From Gammaproteobacteria bacterium (lineage in GTDB: Bacteria > Pseudomonadota > Gammaproteobacteria > Steroidobacterales > Steroidobacteraceae): 64,000 nt of DNA. Of this stretch, positions 13,036-16,459 are shown one piece after another (the stretch's first letter is position 1; each line of letters starts with the position of its first letter). A program made the position numbers and the translations under genes. The DNA lies in the NCBI GenBank assembly GCA_025358295.1, contig JANYJY010000009.1:99052-163051 (forward strand). The letters run 5' to 3'. The notes under the pieces are model-generated. The model was not told the origin of the DNA. It did not search any database and saw only the letters and a list, made by a program, of their open reading frames with translations.

Positions 13036-13410
13036 TTGACCGTCCCGCCAGGCTTCCCGTTCACGCGTCTCAGGATGCATTCTGGCGAGAACGTTCTATG
13101 GTCCGGGTATAACCCTACGTTTCATCGATTCCTAGACTACGGATTGGTCCTGTCGGATCGAGCGCTGTACCTATGCCGCCGCAGCTGGTGGCGGCTGGCG
13201 CTGTGGAAGAGATTTCCTCTCGATATCATCGACGAGTTCGTTCTACTTGACGGCGGCGGACGGCCTGGGGTCAGGATACGCACTGCGACACGGAATATTA
13301 CATTTCGTACGCCATTTGACTTTTACGCCGATGAAATGGAGTTTGACCGTATGGTCCTGGAGAAGGCCGTTGCTGCAGTCGGTGCTGCGAAGTCCGCGGT
13401 TAACACCTAA
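13036..13410 (+). CDS. Hypothetical cassette-encoded protein, possible PH-like fold
   Basis: 124 aa ORF (TTG start) immediately after a core site and ending inside the next attC-like site. Confidence 0.6.
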   Translation: MTVPPGFPFTRLRMHSGENVLWSGYNPTFHRFLDYGLVLSDRALYLCRRSWWRLALWKRFPLDIIDEFVLLDGGGRPGVRIRTATRNITFRTPFDFYADEMEFDRMVLEKAVAAVGAAKSAVNT

Positions 13411-13533
13411 CCAACGGTTCGAGCGAGCGCGGGGTAGCATCTTCGGTGGGCCAAGGAGGGGATCGATGATCGAGATAAAGTGCCTTCGTTTTGCGTTACC
13501 GCACCCTCGCGTCGCTCAGCCCTGTCGTTAGCT
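13405..13533 (+). repeat. attC-like recombination site 1 (129 bp)
   Basis: R'' ACCTAAC (13405-13411), L'' GGTTCGAGCG (13416-13425), L' CGCTCAGCC (13513-13521), R' GTTAGCT (13527-13533). Confidence 0.8.
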
Positions 13534-13594: not shown

Positions 13595-13867
13595 ATGGAC
13601 TACGAATGGGATCAGGCCAAGGCGGCAGCGAATCTCAAGAAGCACGGTGTAGCATTTGCTGATGCCGCGCTTGCGCTAGAGGACCCGTTGGCGGTAACCA
13701 TTTCGGATCCAGACGCGATGGGTGAGTCAAGGTTCATCTGTGTGGGCGCCGATCCCACAGGTCGAGTTCTTGTGACTGTGTTCGCGCCGGGCGGAAATTC
13801 AACCCGAATAATTTCCTCGCGCAAAGCCAGCCGGGCTGAGCGCATTAACTACGAGTCAAAGCAATGA
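13595..13867 (+). CDS. brnT: BrnT family toxin
   Basis: MDYEWDQAKAAANLKKHGVAFADAALALEDP and RIISSRKASRAERINYE. Confidence 0.92.
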   Translation: MDYEWDQAKAAANLKKHGVAFADAALALEDPLAVTISDPDAMGESRFICVGADPTGRVLVTVFAPGGNSTRIISSRKASRAERINYESKQ

Positions 13868-14118
13868 GAAAGGAATACGATTTTTCGAAGGGCAAGCGGG
13901 GTGCCGTTGTCCCTGTGCCGAAAGGAAAGACACGCATAACCATTCGTCTTGACGACGATCTTCTCGAGTGGTTCAAGGCGCAGGTTGACGCGGCGGGCGG
14001 TGGCAATTATCAGTCCTTGATCAACACCGCACTCCGTGAGCACATGAAGAGCGCTAATGAGCCGCTGGAGAAAACATTGCGTCGCGTGCTCCGTGAGGAA
14101 TTGCGCAAAGCCAGCTAA
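13864..14118 (+). CDS. brnA: BrnA family antitoxin
   Basis: Overlaps brnT; KTRITIRLDDDLLEWFKAQVDAAGGGNYQSLINTALREHM (ribbon-helix-helix). Confidence 0.92.
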   Translation: MRKEYDFSKGKRGAVVPVPKGKTRITIRLDDDLLEWFKAQVDAAGGGNYQSLINTALREHMKSANEPLEKTLRRVLREELRKAS

Positions 14119-14239
14119 CCAACGGTTCGAGCGGGCGCGCGGGAGCATCTTCGATTGGCCATGGAGGGAATCACGTGTCGATAAAGTGCCATAGCTTGGT
14201 GTCGCGGGGACCGCGCGCCGCTCAACCTAATCGTTAGAG
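14113..14239 (+). repeat. attC-like recombination site 2 (127 bp), best-formed copy
   Basis: R'' GCTAAC, L'' GGTTCGAGCG (14124-14133), L' CGCTCAACC (14219-14227), R' GTTAGAG (14233-14239). L' reverse complement GGTTGAGCG pairs with GGTT-C-GAGCG, leaving one extrahelical base as in classical attC. Confidence 0.85.
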
Positions 14240-14282: not shown

Positions 14283-14495
14283 ATGAGCAATTCGGTGGTC
14301 AGTGTTTCTCCTGATGTAATGAGTGGGGCCGCAGTATTCCCAGGTACTCGCGTGCCCGTTCAAACGCTACTTGAATATCTTGAAGCTGGCGATTCCATTG
14401 ACGAATTCCTCGCAGGGTTTCCCTCTGTATCACGGTCGCAGGTGATTGCGTTTCTGGAGCGCGCGACCACCCTAGCCGTCACTGATGCCGCTTGA
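14283..14495 (+). CDS. DUF433 domain antitoxin-like protein
   Basis: PDVMSGAAVFPGTRVPVQTLLEYLEAGDSIDEFLAGFPSVSRSQVIAFLE. Confidence 0.9.
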   Translation: MSNSVVSVSPDVMSGAAVFPGTRVPVQTLLEYLEAGDSIDEFLAGFPSVSRSQVIAFLERATTLAVTDAA

Positions 14496-14813
14496 GAGTC
14501 CTACATCTACGAATGCGTCGATGTTCGCCTGGCGGCGAGCCTCGGCACTGTTGATGTTCGTACCGTTGCGGATCAGGGTTGGCTGGGAATATCGAACGGC
14601 AAGCTGTTGGCACTCGCCGCAGCAGAATTTGACGTATTCGTTACTGTTGATTGGAACCTACCGTTCCAGCAGCATTTACCGAAATTCGACATTGCTGTCA
14701 TTCTGATGCGAGCCAAGTCGAATCGACTTGACGATCTGGTCTTGCTGGTTCCAGATTTGGTATCCGCAATCCCGAGCGCGAAGCAGGGCGTGGTCACTCC
14801 GATCGGCCTCTAA
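14492..14813 (+). pseudogene. DUF5615/PIN-like toxin with N-terminal frameshift
   Basis: Starting TTG (overlapping the antitoxin TGA) reads LRVL. The rest, YECVDVRLAASLGTVDVRTVADQGWLGISNGKLLALAAAEFDVFVTVDWNLPFQQHLPKFDIAVILMRAKSNRLDDLVLLVPDL, is in another frame with no good start codon. Confidence 0.75.
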
Positions 14814-14823
14814 CAATCTCTAC

Positions 14824-14836
14824 GGAGTTCCCTGTC
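14824..14836 (+). repeat. IS subterminal inverted repeat, window-left end
   Basis: GGAGTTCCCTGTC. Confidence 0.8.
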
Positions 14837-14924
14837 AAGAGCTGACGTGTGAAGGCCGGTAGATTTATTTCCGGCGGCCCCCTGATTTGATTCAACGGAA
14901 AGAGCAAACGTAAAGATCGAGGTC

Positions 14925-15125
14925 GAGGATAAGACTGCATCTCTCTACGCGGCCTTGTGGGATAAAGCGGAGTGTGTATCCGGGCCAAGATATTAGTCGC
15001 GTACGGTGTCCTCATTCGATTCTCGGCGACGACACGCAGCCAATGATCAGTCGGCTGCGTTGGAGCGTGGCGCCAGATTGTTAGCCAGGTTTTCACCGTA
15101 CTCGGTCTGACCTCGTTGTCGATCT
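14925..15125 (-). ncRNA. Candidate IS110/IS1111 bridge RNA (seekRNA)
   Basis: Non-coding, 3' of the transposase. Minus-strand sequence contains CTAACAATCT (matches target attC 14810-14819), CGTAGAGA (matches the IS terminus, reverse complement of 14817-14824) and CTTAT (pairs with ATAAG of the other IS end). Confidence 0.55.
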
Positions 15126-15174
15126 TACTTCGCATCTTCAGGGGTGGGGTTCGACTCGGTTTCAATGGCGGCCC

Positions 15175-16245
15175 TCAGGCGCTCACAGCATGCCGGGTCG
15201 GCGCATGTCGCCGCCAAGCATTCGGATCGTAGGATTCACCGTGGGCCAAGATGGCCCAGATGATTCGCACGTGTTTGTTCGCGATCGCAACGAGGGTCTT
15301 GTGGTAACCGACTCGAGCGTGCAGATCGATGATCCATTGCTCGAGTCGAGAGCGTTTGACCGGTTCGCGCTTCAGAGCGACCTGCAACGTTGAACGGGCA
15401 CCTTGGGTCAGTAGCCCGCGCAGGTAGCTATCACCCCGTTTGGTGATCACGCCGAGACGTTGTTTACCGCCGGAGCTGTTTTGTCTCGGCACGAGGCCAG
15501 TCCAGGCGGCCATCTGGCGTCCGTTCTTGAAGTCGCGAGGATTCGATACGGTGGCGATGAGCGCGCTGGCGGTCAGTGGCCCGACGCCGGTGAGTGCCTG
15601 GATACGCTGCGCCGGCTCGCTGTGACGCACGTGATTGTGAATTTCGGCGTCACAATCGGCGATGCATTGCTCGATGTCCCGCAGGTGTTGAAGTGCGTTC
15701 GAGAGGATCGGTCGAAAGCGTGCCGGCAGCCGCTCATCTTGTGCCAATTGGGGCAAGTGGCGGGTCAGTGCCGCCGACGATCGACCGAGCCACACGCCAA
15801 ACTCGGCGAGCAAGCCACGGGTGCGGTTCAACAGCGCGGTGCGCTCCTCGCCGAAGCCTGCCCGCGCTCGGTGCCAGGCGAGCATGGCCTGTTGATCGAC
15901 GGACTTGACGGTGACAAAGCGCATGTCGGGTTGCCGCACGGCCGTCAAAATTGCCTGCGCGTCGTTACGATCGTTTTTTGCTCCCTGACTCTTGCGAAAG
16001 GGAGCGACGAATTCCGCGGCCATGAGCTTCGCCGTATGTCCGTGCTCGCCCAGAAACCGTGCCCAGTGATGCGCAGAGCTGCAGGCTTCCATCCCAAACA
16101 GACAGGGAGCCAGCTTCACGGCCCACTCGGCGAAGCCGGCGAAACTGAACTGCTTGAAATACACACTGCGCCCCTGGGCATCCCCGGCACACACCACAAT
16201 CACTTCCTTTGCGAGATCCACACCAACAGTAGTAATCTGGTTCAT
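15175..16245 (-). CDS. IS110 family transposase
   Basis: MNQITTVGVDLAKEVIVVCAGD (DEDD domain), KNDRNDAQAI, and Transposase_20 motif IQALTGVGPLTASALIATVSNPRDFKNGRQMAAWTGLVPRQNSSGGK. Confidence 0.95.
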   Translation of the reverse strand: MNQITTVGVDLAKEVIVVCAGDAQGRSVYFKQFSFAGFAEWAVKLAPCLFGMEACSSAHHWARFLGEHGHTAKLMAAEFVAPFRKSQGAKNDRNDAQAILTAVRQPDMRFVTVKSVDQQAMLAWHRARAGFGEERTALLNRTRGLLAEFGVWLGRSSAALTRHLPQLAQDERLPARFRPILSNALQHLRDIEQCIADCDAEIHNHVRHSEPAQRIQALTGVGPLTASALIATVSNPRDFKNGRQMAAWTGLVPRQNSSGGKQRLGVITKRGDSYLRGLLTQGARSTLQVALKREPVKRSRLEQWIIDLHARVGYHKTLVAIANKHVRIIWAILAHGESYDPNAWRRHAPTRHAVSA

Positions 16246-16326
16246 GAGTTCCCCTTCTCTGGTTACGATTGATCGTCACAACTCAATCTTGGCACTTTGA
16301 TGCCGTGCGGCCCACGCCGCTTCAGG

Positions 16327-16339
16327 GACGGGGAACTCC
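16327..16339 (-). repeat. IS subterminal inverted repeat, window-right end
   Basis: GACGGGGAACTCC; reverse complement GGAGTTCCCCGTC. Confidence 0.8.
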
Positions 16340-16346
16340 CTTATAT

Positions 16347-16459
16347 TCGGTTCGAGCGATCGCGGGTCGCGTCTTCGGTACGCCAAGGAGGGAAGTCGAT
16401 GATTAGGATAAAACATCTTTGTTGGTCGTCGGCGCAGCCGCGCGCCGCTCAGGTTAGGC
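16347..16459 (+). repeat. attC-like site 3, distal part, separated by the IS from its R'' arm (CTCTAAC 14808-14814)
   Basis: TCGGTTCGAGCG (L''), central AAGGAGGG...ATGATTAGGATAAA similar to site 1, CGCTCA (L') and GTTAGGC (16453-16459). Confidence 0.75.

What the first reader, a model, noticed from the sequence alone, without database searches (positions are those of the whole stretch)
14810..15160. Candidate bridge RNA/seekRNA with guide matches to both the attC target and the IS ends
Seen directly: the 358 bp non-coding segment 3' of the IS110 transposase, read in transposase sense, contains CTAACAATCT (complement of 15075-15084), identical to the target arm at 14810-14819. It then contains CGTAGAGA (complement of 14942-14949), identical to the IS terminus (complement of 14817-14824). 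About 8 nt later it has CTTAT (complement of 14929-14933), able to pair with ATAAG near the other IS end. Upstream are two candidate guides for the other target half (CTCGAACCGA): ACCGA (complement of 15102-15106) and TCGAACC (complement of 15148-15154). The order target guides then donor guides fits IS110-family bridge RNAs. The location 3' of the transposase fits the IS1111 group. A 10-nt and an 8-nt match within about 360 bp are unlikely by chance. This would be a natural RNA guide directed at integron attC sites. The left target guide and the fold are not resolved.
Basis: partly seen in the sequence, partly recalled or inferred. Interest (0 to 1): 0.9.

Follow-up and report, generated by a model that had tools for sequence, protein, structure and literature searches.

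The report
attC-targeting IS1111 element with guide RNA
A small jumping DNA element sits inside an integron recombination site and carries, next to its transposase gene, a conserved structured RNA whose loop sequences match the site it jumped into; such RNA-guided elements are already known, but this one comes from a separate branch of the family that seems to have acquired the same target on its own.

Summary
In detail: every sequence match quoted is present at the stated coordinates. The reading as a bridge RNA/seekRNA is strongly supported, with corrections. An RNA model built only from distant relatives (about 55% or less transposase identity) finds one significant match in the window, 14927-15116 minus strand (E 3.6e-27). 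In 23 related elements 20 of 28 base pairs show compensatory change. Two sides of one internal loop hold the target guides: CTAACAATC (15076-15084) and GAATC-GA (15016-15022, one G.U pair). Across 14-16 relatives at different targets, both loop sides match their own flanks and CGTAGAGA's position matches its own IS end (0 of 20,000 permutations each). In the 68%-identical relative L017 the guide has become CAGGAAAT, matching its ATTTCCTG flank. The intact site CTAACAATCGGTTCGAGC occurs in congeners, so the 1,530-bp IS inserted without target duplication. RNA-guided attC targeting by IS1111 elements (ISKpn4, ISPst6, ISPa25) was published in 2024, so this is a new member of a known kind. The modest novelty: this element lies outside the ISPa25/ISPpu24 attC clade (AU p = 0.0001).

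The parts
14819..16348 (-). IS1111-type insertion sequence, 1,530 bp, inserted in an attC site with no target duplication (the dinucleotide TC is present at 14817-14818 and 16347-16348)
   Evidence: sTIR search; uninterrupted site in congeners; same spacing in neighbouring attC sites
15175..16245 (-). IS110-family DEDD transposase, 356 aa, apparently intact (DEDD_Tnp_IS110 + Transposase_20; GLVPRQNSSG motif)
   Evidence: Pfam; ORF; only copy at high identity in its genome
14927..15116 (-). conserved structured guide RNA (bridge RNA/seekRNA) region
   Evidence: model R2, built without this element and its two close relatives, E 3.6e-27, only significant match in the window; covariation
15094..15101 (-). 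5' strand of the helix closing the target loop (GUACGGUG)
   Evidence: all 7 pairs of the consensus helix have compensatory changes
15001..15008 (-). 3' strand of the helix closing the target loop (CACCGUAC)
15076..15084 (-). right-target guide CTAACAATC, 5' side of the target loop
   Evidence: matches flank 14810-14818; covaries with right flank in 14 relatives, 0 of 20,000 permutations
15016..15022 (-). left-target guide GAATC-GA, 3' side of the target loop; pairs with the flank GAACC-GA with one G.U
   Evidence: covaries with left flank in 16 relatives, 0 of 20,000 permutations
14942..14949 (-). left-donor guide CGTAGAGA, in the donor multiloop, identical to the IS right end
   Evidence: covaries with the IS terminus in 14 relatives, 0 of 20,000 permutations
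14824..14832 (+). subterminal inverted repeat GGAGTTCCC
16331..16339 (+). subterminal inverted repeat GGGAACTCC (start and end accurate to about 2 bp)
14810..14818 (+). left part of the split attC target, CTAACAATC (R'' side)
16349..16357 (+). right part of the split attC target, GGTTCGAGC
13407..13424 (+). neighbouring intact attC start CTAACCAACGGTTCGAGC
14115..14132 (+). neighbouring intact attC start CTAACCAACGGTTCGAGC

Best explanation
This is a complete IS1111-type (IS110 family) element with a bridge RNA/seekRNA encoded 3' of its transposase. The RNA folds into a target stem-loop and a donor multiloop. One internal loop of the target stem holds two guides: CTAACAATC on its 5' side pairs with the transposase-sense strand of the right half-site (GATTGTTAG), and GAAUCGA on its 3' side pairs with the opposite strand of the left half-site (GAACCGA). 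The two overlap at the dinucleotide GA. In the donor multiloop CGTAGAGA pairs with the right end of the IS in the circular intermediate. The transposase-RNA complex then recombines the IS circle at the dinucleotide in the R''-side arm of an integron attC, leaving no target duplication. Shown here: the RNA's conservation and fold, the positions of the three guides, and their covariation with target and IS end. Inferred from published work on ISEc11, ISKpn4 and IS621: transcription, binding by the transposase, the circular intermediate and catalysis.
For: Transposase domains. RNAalifold on 23 relatives: 28 pairs, 20 with compensatory change, guides in the loop between helices; 95.6% of cells paired against 74.0% shuffled and at most 46% slid, 138 two-sided changes against 34 shuffled. 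Independent model hit E 3.6e-27. Guide-target and guide-donor permutation tests, 0 of 20,000 each. Natural re-targeting in L017 and between L047 and L048. Empty target verbatim in congeners. ISPa25 and ISPpu24, known IS found in resistance cassette arrays, match the same RNA model. Published precedent with seekRNA co-purification and reprogramming: PMC11187229.
Against: The thermodynamic fold of the single sequence is not better than shuffles (z -0.8). The left-target guide of this copy needs a G.U pair. The copy in L016 matches its own flank only in part (CTAACA). A right-donor guide was not found. No RNA or protein experiment exists for this element.
Confidence: 0.93

Rival explanations
1. 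The transposase recognises the folded attC or its sequence directly, and the matches in the non-coding region are chance or relics of earlier insertions.
For: The insertion is at a site that can fold as single-stranded DNA, as for other IS1111 targets.
Against: Guide loop sides change together with the targets across 14-16 elements, 0 of 20,000 permutations. L017, with 68% identical transposase, has another target and a matching guide. Relatives with the same fold use targets with no attC features.
Confidence: 0.03
2. A bridge RNA is present but with the reader's register: ACCGA or TCGAACC as left-target guide and CTTAT as right-donor guide.
For: The matches exist in this one sequence.
Against: ACCG is conserved in most of 23 relatives with different targets; TCGAACC lies outside the conserved RNA; CTTAT does not covary; the 3' side of the loop covaries with the left flank instead.
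Confidence: 0.02
3. The guide RNA is real but this copy is a dead relic that no longer moves.
For: A single high-identity copy in the genome; no copy at another site seen; one wobble in the left guide.
Against: Intact 356-aa reading frame, intact subterminal repeats and an RNA that scores highest of all on the model (126.6 bits; the model includes it).
Confidence: 0.2

Closest known systems
ISKpn4, ISPst6, ISPa25 (IS1111 elements whose seekRNA targets attC; Siddiquee et al. 2024, PMC11187229)
   Same: Downstream non-coding RNA, two guides in the order top-strand then bottom-strand, attC target, no target duplication. ISPa25 (L069) and ISPpu24 (L100) match the RNA model made here.
   Different: Transposase only 34-41% identical to the ISPa25/ISPpu24/ISPa62 group and in another well-supported clade; different subterminal repeats (GGAGTTCCC against ATGGACTCC); insertion point 2 bp away from that of L040, a member of that group, in the equivalent attC.
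ISEc11/ISXne4 pair (natural re-direction of a seekRNA, PMC11187229)
   Same: Close transposases with different guides and correspondingly different targets, as with this element and L017.
   Different: Other targets; those were tested experimentally.
IS621 bridge RNA (IS110 group, PMC11208160)
   Same: Target loop with two guides, donor loop, dinucleotide core.
   Different: RNA lies 3' and not 5' of the transposase; guide order reversed; donor guide in a multiloop, as described there for IS1111.

Membership tests
IS1111 group of the IS110 family | DEDD transposase with DEDD_Tnp_IS110 and Transposase_20 domains and the GL-P----SG motif | tested here: met
   GLVPRQNSSG in the protein
IS1111 group of the IS110 family | subterminal inverted repeats of 7-17 bp | tested here: met
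   GGAGTTCCC/GGGAACTCC, about 13 bp with one mismatch
IS1111 group of the IS110 family | long non-coding region downstream of the transposase gene | tested here: met
   about 340 nt between stop codon and repeat
Bridge RNA / seekRNA | conserved structured RNA in the long non-coding end | tested here: met
Bridge RNA / seekRNA | two guides complementary to top and bottom strand of the target, overlapping at the core, covarying with the target | tested here: met
Bridge RNA / seekRNA | donor guide matching the IS ends | tested here: inconclusive
   left-donor guide met; right-donor guide not found
Bridge RNA / seekRNA | RNA is made, co-purifies with the transposase and determines target choice | not testable with these tools
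   needs small-RNA sequencing and transposition assay
IS1111-attC group (ISPa25-type clade) | inserted in the attC site of an integron cassette | tested here: met
   split site equals intact attC starts in congeners and the array around it
IS1111-attC group (ISPa25-type clade) | transposase belongs to the clade of known attC-targeting IS1111 elements | tested here: not met
   ISPa25, ISPpu24 and ISPa62-type form one 100/100 group without this element; a single attC clade is rejected, AU p 0.0001. ISKpn4 and ISPst6 could not be identified by name in the collections

The most novel reading that the evidence does not exclude
attC-directed guides arose at least twice in IS1111 transposase lineages: once in the known ISPa25/ISPpu24 clade and again in the lineage of this element, by change of two short loop segments in a homologous RNA, with the insertion point shifted by 2 bp. 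The integron attC would then be a recurrent refuge for RNA-guided transposons.
Probability: 0.7. Interest if true: 0.5.

Novelty: new member of a known kind. Interest (0 to 1): 0.42.

Why it matters
It gives a clean natural example of guide and target changing together in close relatives (this element against L017), a covariance model of the IS1111 guide RNA with guide positions fixed across at least 23 elements, and evidence that RNA-guided attack on integron attC sites is not confined to the lineage known from resistance integrons. Inserted copies split the attC and presumably stop that cassette from being shuffled.

Tried and rejected
Rfam scan of the window: no family above its gathering score. 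Search of the non-coding region against plasmids at nucleotide level: no match. Viral contigs: no relatives. ACCGA and TCGAACC as left-target guide: rejected. CGCTCCAAC, 3' of the right-target guide, looked like a left guide in this sequence alone but lies in the variable extra hairpin absent from shorter relatives: rejected after alignment. CTTAT as right-donor guide: rejected. My simple regular-expression attC finder returned nothing, so the attC assignment rests on identity to intact sites in congeners and neighbours. RNA-model matches without a nearby full transposase were checked: most are at contig ends or beside transposase remnants.

Full report
What is there. A 1,530-bp IS1111-type element occupies 14819-16348. 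Its transposase (15175-16245, minus strand, 356 aa) carries the two Pfam domains of the IS110 family. Subterminal inverted repeats GGAGTTCCC/GGGAACTCC bound it. It splits the sequence CTAACAATC|GGTTCGAGC. That sequence occurs uninterrupted in three other genomes of the same genus and with one mismatch in several more; one of them, G097, has 16 such sites, eight exact, at about 0.4-2 kb spacing on two contigs, as expected of a cassette array. Two neighbouring sites in the window, CTAACCAACGGTTCGAGC at 13407 and 14115, have the same spacing. The element therefore inserted in an attC without target duplication. No integron integrase above the family cut-off was found in the genome, so the array is probably an attC cluster lacking an integrase, or the integrase is not assembled.

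The observation. The real target match is 9 nt, CTAACAATC; the tenth base belongs to the IS end.

The RNA. The nearest relatives with a readable non-coding region, L016 (71% transposase identity) and L017 (68%), align with it throughout. Twenty-three relatives were aligned. RNAalifold gave, unaided, a target stem with an internal loop, followed by a donor multiloop; 20 of 28 pairs have compensatory changes. Controls: 95.6% of cells pair against 74.0% in shuffles and at most 46.3% in slid versions; 138 two-sided changes against 34. A covariance model made without this element and its two close relatives found 14927-15116 (minus) with E 3.6e-27 as the only significant match in 64 kb. Searched in 120 genomes of the family, the model with all members (R1) hit almost only beside IS110 transposases, their remnants or contig ends.

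The guides. The two sides of the internal loop were taken by alignment column and compared with each element's own flanks, for all elements whose ends could be located. Longest exact matches averaged 7.64 to the own right flank against 3.62 to others, 6.81 against 4.10 for the left flank, and 6.86 against 3.79 for the donor segment against the own IS terminus; no permutation of 20,000 reached the observed sum in any of the three. Examples, guide/flank: L017 CAGGAAAT/ATTTCCTG right and CACCT-GA/CACCT-GA left; L054 AAGTCCGTC right; L058 TTGTTGCAT right and GATTTGAAT left; L059 ATTATTGTAC right. In this element the right-target guide is CTAACAATC (15076-15084) and the left-target guide GAATC-GA (15016-15022), which pairs with GAACC-GA through one G.U. 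The donor guide CGTAGAGA (14942-14949) equals the right IS end. The order right guide then left guide matches the published order for IS1111 seekRNAs (PMC11187229).

Natural re-targeting. L017 keeps the stems and the donor guide, but the target loop reads CAGGAAAT and CACCTGA, and its flanks are ATTTCCTG and CACCTGA. L016 keeps CTAACA and sits in another attC-like site with a shorter spacer, so its match is partial. It is the weakest case.

Comparison with the known. seekRNAs of ISKpn4 and ISPst6 that target attC were shown experimentally to exist, and that of ISPa25 was predicted, in 2024 (PMC11187229). ISPa25 and ISPpu24, taken from resistance plasmids, match the model made here. The principle is therefore not new. 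In a tree of 48 transposases the known attC elements ISPa25, ISPpu24 and ISPa62-type group with L034, L039 and L040 from this bacterial family (100/100), whereas the window element groups with L016, L017, L005, L048, L051 and L057 (100/100); holding all attC-targeting elements together is rejected (AU p 0.0001). L040, of the other group, sits in a homologous attC of a congener, with the insertion point 2 bp away. Independent acquisition of attC guides is the likeliest reading. Exchange of the short loop segments between lineages is not excluded. Caveats: targets of many rows labelled 'other' were not examined in depth, and ISKpn4 and ISPst6 themselves could not be identified by name.

Verdict. 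A real, well-supported guide RNA of a new IS1111 element directed at attC: a new member of a known kind, with a second lineage as its modest novelty.

Noticed in passing
L005:524-3374: Two IS1111 elements with the same RNA fold lie in tandem, each apparently in a consecutive attC of one array; the second is followed directly by a further IS1111-type end (ATGGACTCCTCC).
   Followed up: partly
L017 flanks: The re-targeted relative sits in one of several nearby copies of GATTTCCTGAGTTGGGGACCAC, a repeat of unknown nature that seems to be its target.
   Followed up: no
L052, right end of the IS: The sequence CCCTGTAAGT is present three times in tandem at the right end before the matching target CCTGTTAG, as if the end had been duplicated.
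   Followed up: no
G097 contigs C44 and C48 (locus L103): A congener has 16 near-identical attC starts (eight exact) on two contigs and an ISPa25-clade IS1111 (L040) in one of them.
   Followed up: partly
13595-14118: Cassette with a BrnT/BrnA toxin-antitoxin pair between two attC sites.
   Followed up: no
14283-14797: Cassette with a DUF433 protein followed by a reading frame without a clear start that may be the remains of a partner gene.
   Followed up: no
G000:C21 (locus L002) and G000:C36:30-113: The same genome has a second IS1111 with the same RNA fold and different guides, and a partial RNA match at a contig end.
   Followed up: partly
L034: IS of the ISPa25 clade whose guide TAACCAACG matches its flank; the same attC type is intact at 13407 and 14115 of the window.
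   Followed up: partly
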